In this document: one piece after another, positions 1-55,075 of the stretch | How the letters are laid out: every line of letters starts with the position of its first letter | Position numbering within the stretch: the first letter of the stretch is position 1 | Source: Erysipelotrichaceae bacterium | GTDB taxonomy: Bacteria; Bacillota_I; Bacilli_A; Erysipelotrichales; Erysipelotrichaceae | Direction: 5' to 3' | Assembly: GCA_017441765.1 (NCBI GenBank) | Contig: JAFRVK010000033.1 | Coordinates: 1-64,000, forward strand | Length of the DNA stretch: 64,000 nt | The notes under the pieces: generated by a model | What the model was told of the DNA's origin: nothing | What the model saw: the letters and a program-made list of their open reading frames with translations, nothing else | The model's database searches: none | Position numbers and translations under genes: made by a program

Positions 1-61
1 ACTTCATAAAGGAATACATACATTACTACAACTACGAAAGACCCATGTATAAGCTCAATTA

Positions 62-98
62 CAAAAGCCCTGCGGAGCATACGCTCTCACAGGGCTTC
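62..98 (-). terminator. Rho-independent terminator of the iorA operon
   Basis: Read on the minus strand, arms AAGCCCTG (97-90) and CAGGGCTT (72-65) enclose a smaller GAGCGTATGCTC hairpin and are followed by TTTTGT. It lies about 90 bases past the stop of the last operon gene, which fits the 3' end of the whole eight-gene transcript. Bases 99-184 show nothing else. Confidence 0.8.
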
Positions 99-184
99 AG
101 ACTGACTTTTTAGAACTGTCTACTTTCTGTTGACAAGTTCAGATCGGAAGCCTTTTGTTTTGTTATGGATGACAGGAACGGACC

Positions 185-1387
185 TTATTCCATCCCTTCA
201 CAGTTGATCATGATCTTGCAGTCGGAACAGGCGAAACTGCAGCACGGATGGATGTATCCAACGACCTTGTCGTACTGGCGTCTCCGTTCTGTAAGTTCCG
301 GTGTATAGACTTCTCCGGATACCAGTCTGGAACGGCACCATCCGCATTCACCGCTCCTGCATCTTGAAGGAGCCTTGATTCCTGCGCGTTCCAAGGCGAC
401 CAGGATCGGTTCATCGCAACGGACAGGAACCTTATGAGTGATCCCATCGTTGGTGATGACGGTCAGTTCATAGACCTTTGCCTGATGATCCTTCAGATAT
501 TCTGCATCGCGGTCGGTCAGTCTGTACTCCCCATATGCATCGAAACGGATCTGTTTTCTTGGCAAGCCCAGTTTCTCTGTTTCTTTTCGAATGTAGTCAT
601 ACATGCCCTGTGATCCGCACACGAAGACGGAATCGTTCCTATCAGATACTTCGCTGATCAGTTCTGCGCTGATGAAACCGTGACGATATCCTTCTTTTTC
701 TTCATCCGATAAGACATGGATCACGTTGATCCTGCCGCATCGGTTCTGCAGCTCCTCGAGTTCTTCCTTGAACAGGATCTCTTCTTCGGTCCTGCTTCCA
801 TAAAGAAGCGTCAGTTCGAAATCTTCCGTTCCCTCGGCGATGGCCTTCGCAAACGACAGGAACGGAGCGATACCGCTTCCTCCTGCGATTCCGATGACTT
901 TCTTTGTATCCCGTAGCGGTTCGTAGCAGAAGAACCCGGATGGGGCAGAGATATCGATCTTTGTTCCTATGTTGAAATGGGTGTTGATATACTCGGAAGC
1001 GAAACCGTTTTTCATCGTCTTGACGATGATCTGATACTCTCCCTTCAACGCCTGTAAAGGAGAGGAACACAGCGAGTAAGGTCTTGTCAGGAGGGAATCT
1101 CCGATCGCCAGTTCCAGACTGATGTACTGACCTGCCTGGAAATATGCCAGAGCATCCGTTCCTTTTTCAGGATCCGCACGGAGAGTGAACAGCTTTGCTC
1201 CGTTCAGTTTCTTCACATCGCTCACAACGACGTGCTGGACTTTCGGATGCAGCTTTTTTGCCAGGATATTGGCATTGTATTCGTATTTCGGAAATTCAGC
1301 TGATGCATTCTCGATGATCCTTCTTCGGCTGGGAATGATCTGTGCGAAACGTTCTACCGGAATGTTATTCAAATACTCTTTCTTCAT
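185..1387 (-). CDS. FAD/NAD(P)-binding oxidoreductase with C-terminal 2Fe-2S ferredoxin domain
   Basis: This 400-residue protein is a ferredoxin-NADP-reductase-type electron transfer enzyme. After a roughly 45-residue leader it has an FAD-binding barrel (RPYSLCSSP, 102-110), an NAD(P) domain (GIAGGSGIAPF, 166-176) and a plant-type 2Fe-2S domain with C343-x4-C348-x2-C351 and a last ligand near C382. Four further cysteines (383, 387, 390, 396) crowd the C-terminus. It is the last gene of the operon and overlaps the upstream flavoenzyme by 4 nt (ATGA), so the two products may work as a pair. By family it passes electrons between NAD(P)H and an acceptor through FAD and the iron-sulfur cluster. 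The partner (ferredoxin from IorAB, or the neighbouring flavoenzyme) is inferred. Confidence 0.85.
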   Translation of the reverse strand: MKKEYLNNIPVERFAQIIPSRRRIIENASAEFPKYEYNANILAKKLHPKVQHVVVSDVKKLNGAKLFTLRADPEKGTDALAYFQAGQYISLELAIGDSLLTRPYSLCSSPLQALKGEYQIIVKTMKNGFASEYINTHFNIGTKIDISAPSGFFCYEPLRDTKKVIGIAGGSGIAPFLSFAKAIAEGTEDFELTLLYGSRTEEEILFKEELEELQNRCGRINVIHVLSDEEKEGYRHGFISAELISEVSDRNDSVFVCGSQGMYDYIRKETEKLGLPRKQIRFDAYGEYRLTDRDAEYLKDHQAKVYELTVITNDGITHKVPVRCDEPILVALERAGIKAPSRCRSGECGWCRSRLVSGEVYTPELTERRRQYDKVVGYIHPCCSFACSDCKIMINCEGME

Positions 1388-39764: not shown

Positions 39765-42359
39765 ATGGAAGATAAAGAATTAAGTAAGAAAGAAAAAATC
39801 AACAAAGACACTCTTCAGGAAGAAGATATTCTGGATATTGAAAAACGGATCCAGGCTTTGGAAGAGAGGATCGAAAGTATGAAGAAAGAAGAAACTCCTG
39901 TCGAAGAAAGCAAACCAGAAAGTGAAAAGAAAGAGCAGGAAGACGCCGATCTTTTAGAAATCGAAGAAACACCTAAAGCAAACAAAGCGGAAGATAACAA
40001 CACAACAGAAACAAACGAACCCGAACAGGATCTCCTGTCGCCGGAAGAAGCATCACTGATAATTACCAAGGAAATGATGAACGCTCTCAATGATGTGCCT
40101 GAAAGCGAAGGAGAGCAGGAAAAAGAAGCAGCCGAAGAAAGCGATGTCGCTGAGGAAGTTGTTGAAACGGTTGAAGAAGAAAGTGAAACCAGTGAAGAAG
40201 CAGAAGCGACAGAAGAAAACAACGAGGAAGAGGTTGAAGAAACCGCGGAAGAAACCACCGATAACACCGCTGAAGAAACTTCTATTGAAGATACGATCGA
40301 AAAAAGCATTGAGGAAGAGCAGATAGAAGTAAACACCGAAGACAACACTAATGATATTACCGAGGAAATAGCGGAAGAAGAATTTTCGGAAGAAGCATAC
40401 GAAGAAACAGAAGAAAATATCGAGATCGAAAGATCTTTTGAAGAAGACACAACAGAGCCTGAAGATCTGAACGATCTTAAAACTCAGATCGAAGAAAAAC
40501 TTCGTGATGTCGAGAAACAGAGCGATCTTCTTTTGGAATACCTTGCGGCGAAAATGGCGGACACCCGCGATAACGCGGCTATGGTATATGATAACGTCAA
40601 GCACGACATGAAGAACGATGTTGATGACATGCGTATCCGAAACGGACTGTCAATCGATGAATCGAAACAAGAAGACAACGAAGCAGCAGAAGATGAAACC
40701 GTCGTCTCAACAGAAGATACCGTTGAAAACACAACACCGGATGTCGATGATCAGAACCAGGATCAGTCTGTATCAGAAGAGACAGCAGAAGACGAAACGG
40801 TTGCTGAAACAGCTCCGGAAGAAACCACAGAATCTGAAATCACCACGGACGTCGCAGAAGAAGCCGAAACAGAAATAACCGAAAGCGAAAACACCGACGA
40901 AACAGCCGGCGAAGAAACAGTAACTGAAGAGAAACCGGCAGAAGAAAAAAACGTTCCTACAGAAACAGAGACCGAAACAGCACCGGAAGATCAGGGACAG
41001 GAAGAAGTCGTCACGGAAGAAAAATCTGCCGAACCTGAAACGAAACAGGAAGGAATTGAAGAAACGGTACCGGAAACACCTGAAGAGAAAAACGAAGCAG
41101 CGCCGGAAAAAGAAACGGAACAACCGGAAGAGAAACAACCTGAAGAAAAGAAACAAGACGAGGAAGAAACGATAAAAGAACCGGAAAAGACCGGATTCCT
41201 TTCCAACAGACAGTATATGTGGATCGCTCTGCTTGCGGTTCTGGTGGCGCTTGGCGTATGTGTTCATTCCATGTATCCTGCCATGCAGAAAAACAGAAGG
41301 TATCAGGATGCGCTCAAGCAGATGGAAAGAGGGGAATATGCGGAAGCCTATGAATCGCTGGATGGCCTCTCAGGATACAAAGATGCCGACAGATATATCA
41401 CATATTGCAACGCTTTGGAATACTACAACAGCGGCGAACTTGATCAAGCGATCGATGCCTTCACGCGCGTAAGCGATCTGGGAGAAGCCCAGCAATACAT
41501 CGATTACATCACCGCTGAAAAAACCATCAGCGACAGTACCGCTTCCAAAGATTTTGTCAAAGCAGCTGAATTATTCAATCAGGCAGGCGGCCTGTTGGAC
41601 AGCAAAGCCATGGCTGAATATTGCCAGGGAATTACAGCGTTCCTGAATAACGAAAGCAACGCAAAGGATCTCTTGAAAAAGATTGCTGATAAAAAAGAAG
41701 TCAAAGAAACCTATTACAATAACGCGGCCGATCTGGTACGCTATATCGACGCCGGTACCGCTTTCGATAATGACGACTTAAGCAGTTATGACACATTAAG
41801 AGAACTCGCTTCCAAGGAAGAAGCCTTTGTATCACGCATGGCGGGACGCTATACCGAATATGTCAAAGGTCTGGATTATCTGGAGAAAGAAAAATACTTC
41901 AGCGCCTATTCCTGTTTCAGCAACTGTCAGGGACTCAAAGACGCGGATGAACTGGCACAGAGCTGTTTCCAGACAAGGCCGGTATCCGGCATCCTTTACC
42001 GCAATGTCAGCTCCGGTTCCGTTGAGATCACAGTCTATGACACCAGCGACAGCAAGGATATGTATCTCAAGATCTATGATGAAAAGAACGAATTGATCGA
42101 AACACTTTATGTCCGTGACGGAGAATCAGCAACCGCTTATTTCCAAGGCGGTACGTTCCGTATGGCGGTCGCTTATGGCGAGAACGGATGGTGGTTCGGT
42201 CCGGAGGAATCTTTTGGCAGCACCGGCATCTACCAGAGACTGATTCTGAGCGGAAGCGATGAATACTACAACTTCCCAAGCGGAGCATCCTACTCGCTGC
42301 GGTTCGATGTCGATGACGGTAACGTCAATCGCCGAAGCAGCGACTATGGTGATTTCTAA
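39765..42359 (+). CDS. Membrane protein: very long acidic N-terminus, one TM, repeat region and C-terminal beta module (paralogue B)
   Basis: This 864-residue protein has an unknown role. About the first 480 residues are highly acidic and low-complexity with a short coiled-coil-like part (LEERIESMKKEE) and a segment near 230-290 of more normal composition (DVEKQSDLLLEYLAAKMADTRD). One membrane helix follows (about 484-502), then TPR-like repeats and the same C-terminal module as paralogue A, ending DYGDF. The zinc ribbon of A is missing. ATG 39765 follows GGGAG by 7 nt; an earlier in-frame ATG (39726) lacks a ribosome site. The topology suggests a long intracellular acidic tail and an external module. 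Confidence 0.85.
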   Translation: MEDKELSKKEKINKDTLQEEDILDIEKRIQALEERIESMKKEETPVEESKPESEKKEQEDADLLEIEETPKANKAEDNNTTETNEPEQDLLSPEEASLIITKEMMNALNDVPESEGEQEKEAAEESDVAEEVVETVEEESETSEEAEATEENNEEEVEETAEETTDNTAEETSIEDTIEKSIEEEQIEVNTEDNTNDITEEIAEEEFSEEAYEETEENIEIERSFEEDTTEPEDLNDLKTQIEEKLRDVEKQSDLLLEYLAAKMADTRDNAAMVYDNVKHDMKNDVDDMRIRNGLSIDESKQEDNEAAEDETVVSTEDTVENTTPDVDDQNQDQSVSEETAEDETVAETAPEETTESEITTDVAEEAETEITESENTDETAGEETVTEEKPAEEKNVPTETETETAPEDQGQEEVVTEEKSAEPETKQEGIEETVPETPEEKNEAAPEKETEQPEEKQPEEKKQDEEETIKEPEKTGFLSNRQYMWIALLAVLVALGVCVHSMYPAMQKNRRYQDALKQMERGEYAEAYESLDGLSGYKDADRYITYCNALEYYNSGELDQAIDAFTRVSDLGEAQQYIDYITAEKTISDSTASKDFVKAAELFNQAGGLLDSKAMAEYCQGITAFLNNESNAKDLLKKIADKKEVKETYYNNAADLVRYIDAGTAFDNDDLSSYDTLRELASKEEAFVSRMAGRYTEYVKGLDYLEKEKYFSAYSCFSNCQGLKDADELAQSCFQTRPVSGILYRNVSSGSVEITVYDTSDSKDMYLKIYDEKNELIETLYVRDGESATAYFQGGTFRMAVAYGENGWWFGPEESFGSTGIYQRLILSGSDEYYNFPSGASYSLRFDVDDGNVNRRSSDYGDF
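39880..41190 (+). repeat. GAA-rich low-complexity coding tract in paralogue B
   Basis: This is a 1.3-kb tract dominated by GAA, ACA and GAG codons, giving Glu/Thr/Ala-rich protein sequence. Short imperfect units such as EETAEE and TETE recur without fixed period. It interferes with ORF calling on the other strand (Ser/Phe-rich shadows). Confidence 0.65.
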
Positions 42360-50424: not shown

Positions 50425-52092
50425 ATGGCTTACCAGGTATTATATCGTACATATCGTCCGGCCCGTTTCAGCGAAGTCGTCGGACAGGATTACATCATCA
50501 AGACTCTTTTGAATGCGATCAAGACAAACAGGATCGCCCATGCGTATGTCTTTGCCGGACCGAGGGGCACAGGCAAAACCAGCGTGGCAAAACTCTTTGC
50601 GAAAGCGATCAACTGTCAGAATTTCAAAGACGAGGCCTGTGACGAATGCAATGACTGCCTGGCCTATCTGGAAGGCAATCACCCGGACATCATCGAGCTT
50701 GATGCTGCCAGCAATAACGGTGTGGATGATATGCGTGAGATCATCGAACAGGTCGCATACGCGCCATTGCTCGGGAAATATAAAGTATACATCATCGATG
50801 AAGCACATATGCTTTCGACAGCGGCATTCAACTCATTGCTGAAGACGCTGGAAGAACCGCCTGCACATGTGATTTTCATCCTGGCGACTACCGATCCTCA
50901 AAAGATCCTGCCGACCGTCATGTCGCGCTGCCAGCGCTTCAATTTCGGTAAGATCAGCACCTATGAGATCAAAAAGAAAACAAGCGAGATCCTCAAGAAA
51001 GAAGGGATTTCATTTGAAGAAAAAGCCGTGATCGAAATCGCAAGGATGGCGGAAGGCGGCATGAGAGACGCACTGTCTCTGCTGGAACAGTGTCTGGCTT
51101 ATGATCCGGATCAGCTGACTCTGGAAGAAGTTGAAAACATCTTTGGTCTGACTTCTGTGAAGCAGGAGACCGAGCTATATCTCAATCTTCATCAGGGAAA
51201 GATTTCGGAAGCGATCAGTGCATTACGAAACTTGTATGTGAAAGGCGCCGATTGCAAGCGTCTGGCTGCGGACCTTCTGGAAATCATCAAGGATGTCCTG
51301 ATCTATGCGGATTCTGGAAAGACGGAACTGCTGACCAGGCTGGATGGCTTCGAAGCACAGGATATCATCAAGAACATTCCTTTAAATGTCTTATACAAAG
51401 ATATTCGTGAATTGGAAGAAGTCCTGTCAAAAGACAAACAGAACCAGAACTTCCTGGTCTATCTGGAACTGTGCTTCGCGAAGATGGCCGGAAACAGCGA
51501 AAGCCATACCGAAACAAGAGAAGACAAGATGGAACCTGCAGCAGAAAAAACCACTGAAACGGAACCGGTGGAAACAAAAGAAAAAGAAGCGGAACTTGAA
51601 CCGGAGCCTGTTGCGGAACAGCTTCCTGAAGACTATCTCATCGAATCGGGAACCGACTTCCTGCTGGCGCTGCTGCTGGATGCGAATCGCGACCTGAAGA
51701 TCAGCGACCAGATCATCTACAACAAACTTGATCTATACATGTATGAACCTGAAAAGAGAAAGTTCTACCAGCTGCTGATTGGAACAGAGCTCTTTGCCTC
51801 CAACAAAGATGCGATCATCATCTGCGGCAACAGGAACCAAGCCGACAACATCAATACCCGCACCAACAACGAGGCTCTTTATGATTTCCTGAACAGCGAA
51901 TTCGGCATCGACAAGATGGTCTATGCGATCGACAACCAGCAGCGTCAGGAACTGATCGAGCTCTACAAAAAAACACCAAAAGAGGAACGGAACAAACCCG
52001 TCTATGTCGAGAAATACAAGACCAAAGCAAAGCTGACAGTAGAAGATAAGCTGCGCAGCCTGTTTGGCGATGACATGAAAGTGGAGGAATAA
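50425..52092 (+). CDS. dnaX: DNA polymerase III gamma/tau subunit
   Basis: This 555-residue clamp-loader subunit has Walker A GPRGTGKTS near 45-53, a four-Cys zinc module (CQNFKDEACDECNDC) and IIDEAHML as Walker B. A Glu/Lys/Pro-rich linker near 365-400 joins the C-terminal tau part. It loads the DnaN clamp and couples the replisome. It leads the operon dnaX-ebfC-recR-CARF-EVE with 2-nt gaps for the first three genes. No programmed frameshift motif was confirmed. Confidence 0.95.
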   Translation: MAYQVLYRTYRPARFSEVVGQDYIIKTLLNAIKTNRIAHAYVFAGPRGTGKTSVAKLFAKAINCQNFKDEACDECNDCLAYLEGNHPDIIELDAASNNGVDDMREIIEQVAYAPLLGKYKVYIIDEAHMLSTAAFNSLLKTLEEPPAHVIFILATTDPQKILPTVMSRCQRFNFGKISTYEIKKKTSEILKKEGISFEEKAVIEIARMAEGGMRDALSLLEQCLAYDPDQLTLEEVENIFGLTSVKQETELYLNLHQGKISEAISALRNLYVKGADCKRLAADLLEIIKDVLIYADSGKTELLTRLDGFEAQDIIKNIPLNVLYKDIRELEEVLSKDKQNQNFLVYLELCFAKMAGNSESHTETREDKMEPAAEKTTETEPVETKEKEAELEPEPVAEQLPEDYLIESGTDFLLALLLDANRDLKISDQIIYNKLDLYMYEPEKRKFYQLLIGTELFASNKDAIIICGNRNQADNINTRTNNEALYDFLNSEFGIDKMVYAIDNQQRQELIELYKKTPKEERNKPVYVEKYKTKAKLTVEDKLRSLFGDDMKVEE

Positions 52093-52094
52093 GT

Positions 52095-52397
52095 ATGGAT
52101 CTGAATAAACTGATGCAGCAAGCCAGCGCTTTACAGAAACAGCTGGAGGATACTGGAAAGCAGATCGGCGAGATGGAATTCGAAGCGGAAGCATCGAATG
52201 GCCTGGTGAAGGTGACCATGAACGGCGACAACAGGATCCTTAATATCGCGATCGATGAATCCATCCTGAACAAAGAGGATAAAGAAATGATCGAAGACTT
52301 ACTGATGATCGCGGTAAATAACGCGATCGAAAAAGTCGAAGAATACAAGAAAGAAAAGTATGGAGCGATGAGCTCTTCTCTGGGTCTGCCGTTTTAA
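52095..52397 (+). CDS. ebfC: Nucleoid-associated protein YbaB/EbfC
   Basis: This 100-residue protein matches the YbaB/EbfC family: N-terminal helix MDLNKLMQQASALQKQLE, the signature SNGLVKVTMNGD and a C-terminal helix with KVEEYKKEKYG. It forms a DNA-binding dimer. Its place between dnaX and recR is strongly conserved in bacteria, with 2-nt spacing on both sides here. Confidence 0.95.
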   Translation: MDLNKLMQQASALQKQLEDTGKQIGEMEFEAEASNGLVKVTMNGDNRILNIAIDESILNKEDKEMIEDLLMIAVNNAIEKVEEYKKEKYGAMSSSLGLPF

Positions 52398-52399
52398 TC

Positions 52400-52996
52400 A
52401 TGTATCCGAAACAATTCAATAAACTGATCAGCACTCTTGAAAAGCTGCCTGGCGTCGGTGAAAAGACCGCACAGCGCTATGCGTTTTCTCTGCTGGAAAA
52501 AGAACCGGAAGATATCGCTGATTTCATCCTTTCTTTGCAGGAACTGAAACAGATCCGAAGATGCAGGACTTGCGGTTTTTTAAGCGAGGAAGATGAGTGC
52601 CGGTTCTGTGTGGATCCCAGCCGCGATCGGCACAAGATCATGGTGCTGGCGTATCCGCAGGATGTCGTAGCGATGGAGAAGACCGGTTCTTACAACGGGC
52701 TGTACCATGTACTGAACGGACTGATCTCTTCCACCAAGGGGATCTTCCCGGAAGATATCAACATCGAAGAATTGCTGAAACGGATCACTCCGGAAACGGA
52801 TGAGATCATCATCGCTGTTTCCCCGACCATGGACGGAGAGATGACATCGCTGTATCTGAATAAGATACTCAGCGATAAAGGCGTCCTGATCACCCGGCTG
52901 GCGCATGGACTTCCGATGGGCTCTTCCTTGGACTATGCGGATGAACTGACGCTGATCAAAGCTCTGAACAATCGCAGAAAGATTGAAAATGAATAA
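52400..52996 (+). CDS. recR: Recombination protein RecR
   Basis: This 198-residue protein has the helix-hairpin-helix LPGVGEKTAQRYAF near 16-29, a four-Cys zinc finger (C54, C57, C66, C69 region; CRTCGF..CRFC) and a TOPRIM domain with AVSPTMDGE. With RecF and RecO it helps load RecA. It overlaps the CARF gene by 8 nt. Confidence 0.95.
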   Translation: MYPKQFNKLISTLEKLPGVGEKTAQRYAFSLLEKEPEDIADFILSLQELKQIRRCRTCGFLSEEDECRFCVDPSRDRHKIMVLAYPQDVVAMEKTGSYNGLYHVLNGLISSTKGIFPEDINIEELLKRITPETDEIIIAVSPTMDGEMTSLYLNKILSDKGVLITRLAHGLPMGSSLDYADELTLIKALNNRRKIENE

Positions 52997-54122
52997 ACTC
53001 CTAACCGTTTACGATGATTCCGAACCGTTAAACAACGTCGTCAACACCCTGACCCTGGATGTGGACGAAGTCTTTTATTTTTATCATCATGAGGAACATC
53101 GTACCGCGTTTACGAATATCCGCAAAGTCATCCGCAACTACAAAAATGTCGCGCTTCATTTTATCCGTCCGGTCGATGACGTGGCAGAAATCAACAAGAT
53201 CCTTCAGGACAATCAGGAAATCATTGTAGATGTCGGCGGTTCAAAATATCTGTCGCTGCTGCTGTTTGAATCCGCAAGCAGAAACGGAAACCAGATCGTT
53301 TATTTTGACCACGAAGAGAACGTCATCAAAGACTACCGTTCACACACGGTTGTTAAGGGAGAAGTCTTCAAACTGACGATCAAAGACGTCCTGACGCTGC
53401 GCGGAGGCGATATCGCAGAATATTTGCATAAAGGAGCCGCTGATGAACGGACCAAAGAAACGATCTATCAGCTTTTTGAAGATAATCTGGATGACTATTC
53501 GGCGTTAATGAATTATATGTCTTACTTAAATAAAGTGCTTTGTAATGCAAAGAAGATCGGTAACAGATCGTTCCGTATCACCAAGGAACAGATCAGTGAC
53601 ATTAAAAAAGACAGATGTTATGCAAAAATCGGAGACCTGTTTACGATTGAAAATGACAGGATCGTTTTCAAGACGGCAAGACTTGTGGATGTGGTTACCG
53701 TATCAGGAACGCTGCTGGAGAATTATCTTTATCTGAAACTGCTGGATGCCGGACAGTTTGATGATGTGAGAATGAGTGTCGTCGTAGACTTCTCTGATGA
53801 CCGCTACCGTCATCCGGTGAAATGTGAGATCGACCTGCTGGCGCTCCAAAACAACCGGCTGATGTTTGTGAGTTGCAAATCTAACAAGGTCGAAACCCCG
53901 GCACTGAACGAGATCTATGTCCATAATTCCATGTTCGGAAATTCGCTTTCCGTACCGGTCATCTGTGTCTGTGAAAACATCGACCAGTATTCTCCAAGCA
54001 TGTATGCGAAAGCGGAGGAACTGGGGATCTATGTAGTCGATATATCAAACATGAAGGAAGAAGATTTCCCGGAGATCTTCCATAGGATCATCATTGGCGA
54101 TTATAAATACGACTTGTTATAA
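52989..54122 (+). CDS. Card1/Can2-like protein: CARF-type sensor domain and PD-(D/E)XK nuclease domain (DUF1887 type)
   Basis: This 377-residue protein has a Rossmann-like N-terminal half with IIVDVGGSKYLSLLLFE (78-94), comparable to the TGGTK-type ligand loop of Card1/Can2, and a C-terminal restriction-nuclease-like half. Active-site candidates are E244 (SGTLLENYLY), E280-I-D282 and S295-C-K297; the usual ECK is SCK here. Relatives are CRISPR ancillary nucleases switched on by cyclic oligoadenylate, but no cas gene or CRISPR array is in the window. ATG 52989 overlaps recR by 8 nt. The family call is by motif memory; the ligand is unknown. Confidence 0.6.
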   Translation: MNKLLTVYDDSEPLNNVVNTLTLDVDEVFYFYHHEEHRTAFTNIRKVIRNYKNVALHFIRPVDDVAEINKILQDNQEIIVDVGGSKYLSLLLFESASRNGNQIVYFDHEENVIKDYRSHTVVKGEVFKLTIKDVLTLRGGDIAEYLHKGAADERTKETIYQLFEDNLDDYSALMNYMSYLNKVLCNAKKIGNRSFRITKEQISDIKKDRCYAKIGDLFTIENDRIVFKTARLVDVVTVSGTLLENYLYLKLLDAGQFDDVRMSVVVDFSDDRYRHPVKCEIDLLALQNNRLMFVSCKSNKVETPALNEIYVHNSMFGNSLSVPVICVCENIDQYSPSMYAKAEELGIYVVDISNMKEEDFPEIFHRIIIGDYKYDLL

Positions 54123-54123: not shown

Positions 54124-54132
54124 GGAGACAGG

Positions 54133-54996
54133 ATGTCAGCTATCGCTTACGTGACAGATTCTAAAATGCTGGAACTGCATCGTCTGAACAGACATAAGAC
54201 GATGAATTTCTGGCGGCTGTCCACCAATATCGGTTTCTCAGCGTTCCATGAAGATGATCTGGTTTTCTTTCTGTCAAAAGACAAGGAACATCGCAACAAG
54301 GATGAAAAAGGGATCGTCGGATTCGGACGGCTGAAGAAGATGTCGGTCGCTTCGATCAAGACGATGTGGGAGCGTTATGGGATCTATAACGGCTATCAGA
54401 CGCTGGATGATTTCAAACAGGCAATCCTGAAAGTAGCGAAAGACAAGAAACTGCCGAAGAAGATTTCGGGTTTCTATCTGGAGAACGTGACCTTCTTCCA
54501 GCCGGTGTACCTGAGTGAATGCGGCATCGATCTTTCGAATAAAGTAGAGTCCTATATCTATCTGAAAGATCCGGAAGTCGTACTGAAACTGCTGACACTG
54601 GCGAAACATTCCGGAGACCTGTGGACTGGGACATCGGAGGATCAGGAAGCAATCACTGAAGAAGAAAAACGCTTTGTACTGTTCCAGATCCATGACGAGA
54701 TCAAAGATATCGATCAGGACGAAAAAACGCGCAAGAGAGCTGCCAAAGCATTAAAGAAATACACGGAGGAACACCCTGAATACCGGCCGCTTTATGATTC
54801 CGCAAACGAACTGTACCGGATCAATAAAGACCTCATCGAGGTCGTCTTCTACCACGACCGCTACAGCAACACAAAGACACTGGCTGGACAGACGTTCCTC
54901 TATCGCAAGCAGTTCCGTGACCGTTTCCCGGACCGTTACGCCTTCCTCTTCCGCTGCAGCGACGGAGATGCTGTCGTTGAAGAATATCTGAATTGA
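54133..54996 (+). CDS. EVE/PUA-like domain protein of unknown function
   Basis: This 287-residue protein begins with a region resembling the EVE/PUA-like fold: NFWRLS (25-30), HEDDLVFFLS (39-48) and KGIVGFGRL (59-67), the spacing in which such domains recognise modified bases. The rest is helical and charged with KKYTEEHPEYRPLYD near 220; no enzyme motif is seen. ATG 54133 (MSAIAY) follows GGAGACAGG. It is 10 nt after the CARF gene, so the two are likely to work together. The fold call is tentative. Confidence 0.5.
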   Translation: MSAIAYVTDSKMLELHRLNRHKTMNFWRLSTNIGFSAFHEDDLVFFLSKDKEHRNKDEKGIVGFGRLKKMSVASIKTMWERYGIYNGYQTLDDFKQAILKVAKDKKLPKKISGFYLENVTFFQPVYLSECGIDLSNKVESYIYLKDPEVVLKLLTLAKHSGDLWTGTSEDQEAITEEEKRFVLFQIHDEIKDIDQDEKTRKRAAKALKKYTEEHPEYRPLYDSANELYRINKDLIEVVFYHDRYSNTKTLAGQTFLYRKQFRDRFPDRYAFLFRCSDGDAVVEEYLN

Positions 54997-55010: not shown

Positions 55011-55043
55011 AGACATGTGCCCAGGCACAACAGACAAACGATC

Positions 55044-55066
55044 ATGACCCTTCCAAAAAGGGTCAT
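55044..55066 (+). promoter_or_regulatory. Leader hairpin before the MATE gene
   Basis: ATGACCCTT (55044-55052) and AAGGGTCAT (55058-55066) form a 9-bp stem with loop CCAAA 9 nt before ATG. No T-run follows. The only purine-rich ribosome-site candidate, AAGGG, is inside the right arm, so the hairpin could limit translation. Confidence 0.5.
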
Positions 55067-55075
55067 ATTAATACT

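What the first reader, a model, noticed from the sequence alone, without database searches (positions are those of the whole stretch)
52989..54122. Card1/Can2-like CARF nuclease housed in the dnaX-ebfC-recR operon without CRISPR
A protein with a ligand-sensing CARF-like half and a PD-(D/E)XK half overlaps recR by 8 nt. CARF nucleases are known as CRISPR type III effectors; here no array, cas10 or other cas gene is in 64 kb, and the partners are replication-repair genes. The active site reads E244, D282, S295-C-K297, with Ser for the usual Glu. This may be a nucleotide-signal-controlled nuclease, or an inactive sensor, serving housekeeping DNA repair or phage defence.
Basis: partly seen in the sequence, partly recalled or inferred. 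Interest (0 to 1): 0.78.

Follow-up and report, generated by a model that had tools for sequence, protein, structure and literature searches.

The report
CRISPR-free CARF nuclease in recR operon
A gut bacterium and its relatives carry, inside a basic DNA replication and repair operon, a switchable nuclease of the kind used by CRISPR immunity, but without CRISPR and next to a conserved nucleic-acid-reading protein; it has been inherited there for a long time and its function is untested.

Summary
Window 52989-54122 encodes a 377-aa CARF plus PD-(D/E)XK protein overlapping recR by 8 nt. Its model matches VC1899 (Z 30.6), Can2 (28.3), Cdn1 (27.7) and Card1 (25.2) over the full length. No relative carrying the operon-type gene has a Cas10 match over cut-off, and 21 of 26 lack Cas1, so it is not a type III CRISPR effector.

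First, the active site is E244, E280, D282, S295, K297; all five are invariant in 29 homologues, so Ser295 is a mark of the branch and not decay of this copy. Second, the closest partner is not recR but the next gene (54133-54996), an unannotated protein with an ASCH/EVE/YTH-fold N-terminal domain. This gene belongs to the dnaX-recR operon across much of the family. The CARF gene sits directly upstream of it in 44 of 45 evaluable genomes and was lost from that spot at least twice. CARF evolves congruently with the operon under purifying selection (dN/dS 0.09).

Most likely it is a CRISPR-independent, ligand-gated nuclease working with a nucleic-acid reader in replication-coupled quality control or defence. 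Ligand, substrate and activity are untested. CRISPR-unlinked members of this family were already known; this fixed housekeeping-operon setting appears new.

The parts
52989..54122 (+). CARF4 plus PD-(D/E)XK protein, 377 aa (DUF1887/VC1899-like)
52989..53363 (+). CARF domain, about residues 1-125; positions aligned to Can2 cA4 contacts S19/T42/K99/Y118 are D10/H33/K86/Y105
   Evidence: CARF-only structures align to residues 1-118/128; residue mapping from HMM alignment, Can2 contacts from PMC7969007, column counts
53406..54119 (+). linker plus PD-(D/E)XK nuclease domain, about residues 140-377
   Evidence: PF09002 match 239-305; full-length match to VC1899
53718..53879 (+). active-site codons E244 (53718-53720), E280 (53826-53828), D282 (53832-53834), S295-C-K297 (53871-53879)
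   Evidence: invariant in 29 homologues; match Cdn1 E274/E308/D310/E323/K325 (PMC12825302) except S295
54133..54996 (+). partner gene, 287 aa: N-terminal ASCH/EVE/YTH (PUA-superfamily) domain (residues 1-165) and an unassigned C-terminal domain
   Evidence: CARF gene directly upstream in 44 of 45 evaluable genomes
54124..54127 (+). GGAG, likely ribosome-binding site of the partner gene, just after the CARF stop codon
   Evidence: sequence; inference
52400..52996 (+). recR, overlapping the CARF gene by 8 nt
   Evidence: identified by sequence and context, not by a family scan
52095..52397 (+). ebfC/ybaB
   Evidence: context
50425..52092 (+). dnaX
   Evidence: context
55043..55067 (.). hairpin between the partner gene and the MATE-family gene; possible end of the operon (the scan scored it on the - strand)
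   Evidence: consensus match only

Best explanation
Shown: the gene encodes a CARF4/DUF1887 protein with the fold of VC1899, Can2 and Card1. It entered the conserved dnaX-(ebfC)-recR operon upstream of an ASCH/EVE-like gene at least once, by the common ancestor of genera g1, g8, g11 and g37, and has since been inherited vertically under purifying selection with occasional loss. No CRISPR type III system accompanies it. Inferred: it acts as a homodimer whose CARF pair binds a small nucleotide-type or phosphate-bearing ligand, probably not plain cA4, since two of the four cA4 contacts shared by Can1 and Can2 are replaced. Binding then opens a Mg2+-dependent nuclease using E244, E280, D282 and K297, with invariant Ser295 in place of the third acid. 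The co-translated ASCH/EVE-like protein, a standing member of this operon with or without the CARF gene, probably reads a modified or unusual nucleic acid at forks or repair sites and directs, restrains or triggers the nuclease. The pair would then be a quality-control or last-resort defence module tied to replication and repair.
For: Fold: VIA-align Z 30.6 to VC1899 over 350 residues, 28.3 Can2, 27.7 Cdn1, 25.2 Card1. Five active-site positions all among 10 invariant columns of 377 (chance 4e-9), including distant homologues outside the operon. K/R at the Can2 Lys99 position in 23 of 25 and Tyr at Tyr118 in 23 of 25 operon-type proteins. CARF-to-partner gap -8 to +27 nt in 23 of 24 measured, 77 nt in one; adjacency in 44 of 45 evaluable genomes. 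Same order kept when formate-THF ligase intervenes or recR is remote. Distance correlation CARF-partner 0.91, CARF-RecR 0.85, no permutation of 2000 as high; with DnaX and RecR held, CARF-partner partial r 0.60 by p-distance, 0.51 by tree distance. dN/dS 0.091 vs 0.082 DnaX, 0.061 RecR, 0.055 partner. No Cas10 match over cut-off in 37 carriers; Cas1 in 5 of 26. No phage or plasmid homologue found. Partner N-domain Z 14.1 to ZmASCH, about 9 to EVE proteins.
Against: No activity, ligand, dimer or interaction was tested. All structural relatives shown have Glu where this branch has Ser295; loss of catalysis with conservation for another reason is not excluded. VC1899, the closest fold, has only weak residual RNase activity not regulated by cA4 (PMC7969007). 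The CARF gene was lost at least twice while the partner stayed, so the partner does not need it. Adjacency could reflect operon inheritance without functional contact. In G158 the two genes lie on different contigs. The partial correlation is not clearly above the DnaX-RecR one (0.42 to 0.65). The g4 copies lack the K/R and Tyr of the presumed ligand site. CD-NTases occur in only 2 of 26 carriers, so no signal synthase has been identified.
Confidence: 0.45

Rival explanations
1. It is an orphan CARF effector that works purely in anti-phage defence (abortive infection), responding to a signal made by phage or by another defence system; its place in the recR operon is only a convenient expression site.
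For: All characterised relatives (Can2, Card1, Cdn1) are antiviral effectors (PMC7969007, PMC12825302). Can1/Can2-like CARF nucleases occur in CRISPR-free CoCoNuT defence operons (PMC11090510). The gene is dispensable. More distant homologues in g7, g28 and g2 sit in varied contexts.
Against: Present in 47 of 53 genomes of five genera and congruent with RecR, unlike the patchy, mobile pattern usual for defence genes; no copy in the phage, plasmid or viral collections searched; no constant signal synthase found.
Confidence: 0.3
2. A ligand sensor with an inactive or residual nuclease: Ser295 abolishes cleavage and the protein now regulates or scaffolds, for example controlling the partner protein or recombination factors.
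For: Ser replaces the catalytic Glu in every member, as opposed to Glu in Can2, VC1899, 8bao and Cdn1 (PMC12825302). The orphan VC1899 is nearly inactive in vitro although its acids are intact (PMC7969007).
Against: E244, E280, D282 and K297 stay invariant at 44% mean column identity, which a dead site would not need; three acids and the lysine remain to hold metal.
Confidence: 0.2
3. A passenger: an acquired nuclease kept in a well-expressed operon without any functional link to the partner or RecR.
For: Secondary losses; insertion between recR and partner genes that otherwise overlap by 4 nt in G574 and G591.
Against: dN/dS 0.09, invariant catalytic and conserved pocket residues, near-constant direct adjacency to the partner.
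Confidence: 0.05

Closest known systems
VC1899 (PDB 1XMX), orphan DUF1887 protein of Vibrio cholerae
   Same: Whole-length fold (Z 30.6, 350 residues); not linked to CRISPR; Can2 Ser19 position is acidic in both.
   Different: VC1899 keeps Glu in the ExK motif, has Asp at the Thr42 position and Val at Tyr118; here His/Arg and Tyr. No ASCH/EVE partner or recR operon is described for VC1899.
Can2 / Card1 / Cdn1, cOA-activated type III CRISPR effectors
   Same: CARF plus PD-(D/E)XK fold (Z 25-28); E-x-D motif and catalytic Lys; basic residue and Tyr at two cA4-contact positions.
   Different: No Cas10; Ser for Glu; two of four cA4 contacts replaced; vertically inherited in a housekeeping operon.
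[quoted passage not shown]
   Same: CARF nuclease outside CRISPR, in the company of nucleic-acid-recognising proteins.
   Different: Those have two CARF domains and sit in large defence super-operons with McrBC homologues; here one CARF domain and a small replication-repair operon.
ZmASCH (5GUQ) and EVE proteins (2EVE) for the partner
   Same: N-terminal domain fold: Z 14.1 over 138 residues to ZmASCH, 9.0 to 2EVE.
   Different: Below any Pfam threshold (best EVE E 0.017 in 4 of 24 members); Phe46 appears to replace the Tyr47 needed by ZmASCH for RNA cleavage (by-eye alignment); extra C-terminal domain.

Membership tests
DUF1887 / VC1899-like (CARF4--PD-(D/E)XK) protein family | Match to Pfam PF09002 over its curated cut-off | tested here: met
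   28.9 bits vs cut-off 26.4; PADLOC CARF4--CARF_PDDEXK E 3e-26
DUF1887 / VC1899-like (CARF4--PD-(D/E)XK) protein family | N-terminal CARF domain followed by a restriction-endonuclease-fold domain, colinear with VC1899 | tested here: met
   Z 30.6, 350 aligned residues, model 1..370 to chain 1..379; the CARF_Card1 Pfam model alone scores below its cut-off (13.8 vs 24.6 bits)
Catalytically canonical Can2/Card1/Cdn1 nuclease | E-x-D plus (D/E)-x-K with acidic third residue | tested here: not met
   E280, D282 and K297 present, but Ser295 instead of Glu in all 29
Type III CRISPR ancillary effector | Encoded with or in the same genome as Cas10 | tested here: not met
   No Csm1 or Cas10 palm match over cut-off in 37 carriers; one Cas10 fragment only in G174, which has a distant non-operon CARF
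Type III CRISPR ancillary effector | cA4 contact residues (Can2 S19, T42, K99, Y118) | tested here: inconclusive
   K86 and Y105 kept (23 of 25 each, K or R at 86), S19 replaced by D/E/N/T and T42 by H/R in most
Type III CRISPR ancillary effector | Activation by cyclic oligoadenylate | not testable with these tools
   needs biochemistry
EVE domain (Pfam PF01878), for the partner | Match over the Pfam cut-off | tested here: not met
   No match for the window copy; 4 of 24 members weakly, best E 0.017
PUA/ASCH/EVE/YTH fold superfamily, for the partner N-domain | Beta-barrel fold shared with ASCH, EVE and YTH | tested here: met
   ZmASCH Z 14.1 (138 residues, rmsd 2.7), AF2351 10.1, 2EVE 9.0, YTH about 8.6; Foldseek E 5e-7
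CBASS effector | CD-NTase in the same genome | tested here: inconclusive
   SMODS family over cut-off in only 2 of 26 carrier genomes and not in the own genome; other CD-NTase families not searched

The most novel reading that the evidence does not exclude
A CRISPR-independent signalling or checkpoint module built into the replication-repair operon of one bacterial family: an ASCH/EVE-fold nucleic-acid reader paired with a CARF-gated nuclease, responding to an unknown nucleotide signal produced during replication stress or phage attack.
Probability: 0.35. Interest if true: 0.78.

Novelty: new variant of a known kind. Interest (0 to 1): 0.58.

Why it matters
CARF nucleases are nearly always read as CRISPR accessories, and the ligands of CRISPR-unlinked members are unknown. 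This one is vertically inherited with dnaX and recR and paired with one specific partner, so it offers a tractable case: what signal does a CARF domain sense when no Cas10 makes cyclic oligoadenylate? The partner gene, a fixed but unannotated member of the dnaX-recR operon in this family, is itself worth study.

Tried and rejected
Type III CRISPR elsewhere in the genome as explanation: rejected for carriers in general. The weak Csm1 hits at model positions 7-134 lie mostly in ORFs of about 515-540 aa and look like HD-domain proteins such as RNase Y; that identity is inferred from position and length, not scanned. Mobile origin: no homologue in phages, plasmids or viral contigs; the alignment scan of viral contigs could not run for CARF and found no relative of the partner. 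Partner outside the family: none among 392 genomes of the phylum beyond the own family. Partner versus solved structures by sequence: nothing. Partner versus viral structures: only generic ASCH-fold hits. The C-terminal domain of the partner was not separately modelled (no prediction jobs left); a degenerate PD-(D/E)XK reading was considered and dropped because no catalytic set is conserved (only G252, with Q253 near-invariant). Literature: no paper found in the library pairing CARF with ASCH/EVE or with recR; the 2020 CARF classification paper is not held.

Full report
Observation. The ORF at 52989-54122 is as described: ATG start inside the end of recR (8-nt overlap), 377 aa, residues E244, D282 and S295-C-K297 at the stated positions. 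Pfam PF09002 (Card1-like endonuclease) scores above its curated cut-off; the CARF_Card1 model is suggestive but below cut-off. PADLOC models of CARF4 with PD-(D/E)XK cover the whole protein (E 3e-26). A single-sequence search of the PDB found nothing convincing, but a profile of 29 homologues finds Can2, VC1899 and a third DUF1887 protein. An AlphaFold2 model (pLDDT 90.7) matches VC1899 with Z 30.6, Can2 28.3, Cdn1 27.7 and Card1 25.2 over nearly the full length.

Active site. In Cdn1 the Mg2+ site is E274, E308, D310, E323, K325 (PMC12825302); in Can2 the E276/D278 pair was mutated to inactivate the nuclease (PMC7969007). By spacing and by the profile alignment these are E244, E280, D282, S295, K297 here. 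All five are invariant across the 29 aligned homologues, which include four from other genera or another family of the order outside the operon; only 10 of 377 window positions are invariant, so this is not chance (4e-9). Ser295 is therefore a fixed trait of the branch. Three acids and the lysine remain; I read the site as probably active, but this is inference.

Ligand pocket. Four cA4 contacts are shared by Can1 and Can2: S19, T42, K99, Y118 (PMC7969007). Through the HMM alignment (the S19 equivalence is a two-residue ungapped extrapolation) they fall on D10, H33, K86 and Y105. K/R at 86 and Tyr at 105 are kept in 23 of 25 operon-type proteins; S19 is mostly D/E/N/T and T42 is mostly H/R. 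A basic residue in the pocket was argued early on to mean a nucleotide-type ligand (PMC4012209). The replaced contacts suggest a ligand other than cA4. The two g4 proteins lack both kept residues.

The partner gene. Directly downstream (54133-54996, 10 nt gap, GGAG before the ATG) is a 287-aa gene without a convincing database match. Its model (pLDDT 88.4) has an N-terminal domain of the ASCH/EVE/YTH superfamily: ZmASCH Z 14.1, AF2351 10.1, EVE protein 2EVE 9.0, YTH domains about 8.6. Four of 24 relatives show sub-threshold EVE matches. ZmASCH binds nucleic acid and cleaves ssRNA using Tyr47, Lys53 and Ser128 (PMC5615036); by eye Tyr47 aligns with invariant Phe46 here, which argues for a reader and not an RNase. 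The C-terminal 120 residues are unassigned.

Operon history. The partner occurs once per genome in 118 of 196 genomes of the order, all in the own family, and nowhere else in a sample of 392 genomes of the phylum. In 17 of 20 sampled genomes without the operon-type CARF it sits with recR on the fetched stretch, often with formate-THF ligase between and mnmG after it; in two of the other three recR lies 5-8 kb away on the same contig, and in the third on another contig. So it is a standing member of the dnaX-(ebfC)-recR operon. The CARF gene is an addition between recR and this partner in genera g1, g8, g11 and g37, and next to the partner but away from recR in g4. Family-wide it is present in 47 of 53 genomes of these five genera (30/36, 9/9, 2/2, 4/4, 2/2), directly upstream of the partner in 44 of 45 evaluable cases. 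The exception is G158, where the two lie on different contigs. Three g1 genomes have the partner but not CARF, with recR and partner overlapping by 4 nt or 46 nt apart; in the partner tree they nest inside the CARF-bearing clade at two places, so CARF was lost at least twice. The tree leaves open whether g4 shares the same acquisition.

Constraint and co-inheritance. Between the window and its closest relative (Erysipelotrichaceae MAG, 85% identity), dN/dS is 0.091 for CARF, 0.082 DnaX, 0.061 RecR, 0.055 partner. Protein distances of CARF correlate with those of the partner (0.91) and RecR (0.85), never reached in 2000 permutations. With DnaX and RecR held constant, CARF and partner keep a partial correlation of 0.60 by p-distance or 0.51 by tree distance; DnaX-RecR reach 0.42-0.65, so this is suggestive only.

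CRISPR. No carrier has a Cas10 match over cut-off by Csm1 or palm-domain models; one distant carrier (G174) has a Cas10 fragment. Cas1 occurs in 5 of 26 close carriers and not in the own genome. The own genome is 77.5% complete, but several carriers are 95-100% complete. CD-NTases of the SMODS family occur in 2 of 26. No phage, plasmid or viral-contig homologue was found.

What is known. CRISPR-unlinked members of the VC1899 family were noted in 2014 (PMC4012209). VC1899 is an orphan with weak RNase activity not controlled by cA4 (PMC7969007). Can1/2-like CARF nucleases occur in CRISPR-free CoCoNuT operons (PMC11090510). New here, as far as the searched library goes, are the fixed position in a replication-repair operon, the branch-wide Ser295, and the pairing with an ASCH/EVE-fold protein.

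Verdict. The protein belongs to the DUF1887/CARF4-nuclease family; it is not a type III CRISPR effector. It likely works like a ligand-gated nuclease together with the partner. Ligand, substrate, activity and the partner interaction are all inferred. Genus and family labels (g1, f1 and so on) are the tool's anonymous groups; the family name Erysipelotrichaceae comes from the title of the closest record. recR, dnaX and ebfC were named from sequence and context, not by a family scan.

Noticed in passing
54133-54996: Unannotated ASCH/EVE-fold gene, single copy and tied to the dnaX-recR operon across much of the family, with or without the CARF gene; its C-terminal domain is unassigned.
   Followed up: partly
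L064 3456-5105 and L046 3861-5522: Formate-tetrahydrofolate ligase sits between recR and the CARF or partner gene in some relatives, with mnmG after it: a folate gene inside a replication operon.
   Followed up: partly
L134, L135, L136: Genomes G574, G591 and G592 of the same genus lost the CARF gene; in the first two recR and the partner overlap by 4 nt. Useful natural deletions.
   Followed up: yes
L073-L083: More distant CARF4 nucleases stand in unrelated contexts in other genera (for example next to a B12-binding radical-SAM gene in L074); the four aligned ones share the SCK motif.
   Followed up: partly
G188:C15, G551:C18, G536:C36: Proteins of about 1400-1500 aa match only the nuclease part of the CARF profile (positions 229-377): other architectures using this nuclease domain.
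   Followed up: no
40124-40430: Imperfect 31-nt direct repeats rich in GAA/GAG, probably coding an acidic, Glu-rich stretch.
   Followed up: no
L138 3-4016: In G158 the CARF gene is followed by a very long ORF (over 1338 aa; its start in L002 reads like a secreted repeat protein) instead of the partner gene, which begins another contig: an insertion or assembly break.
   Followed up: partly
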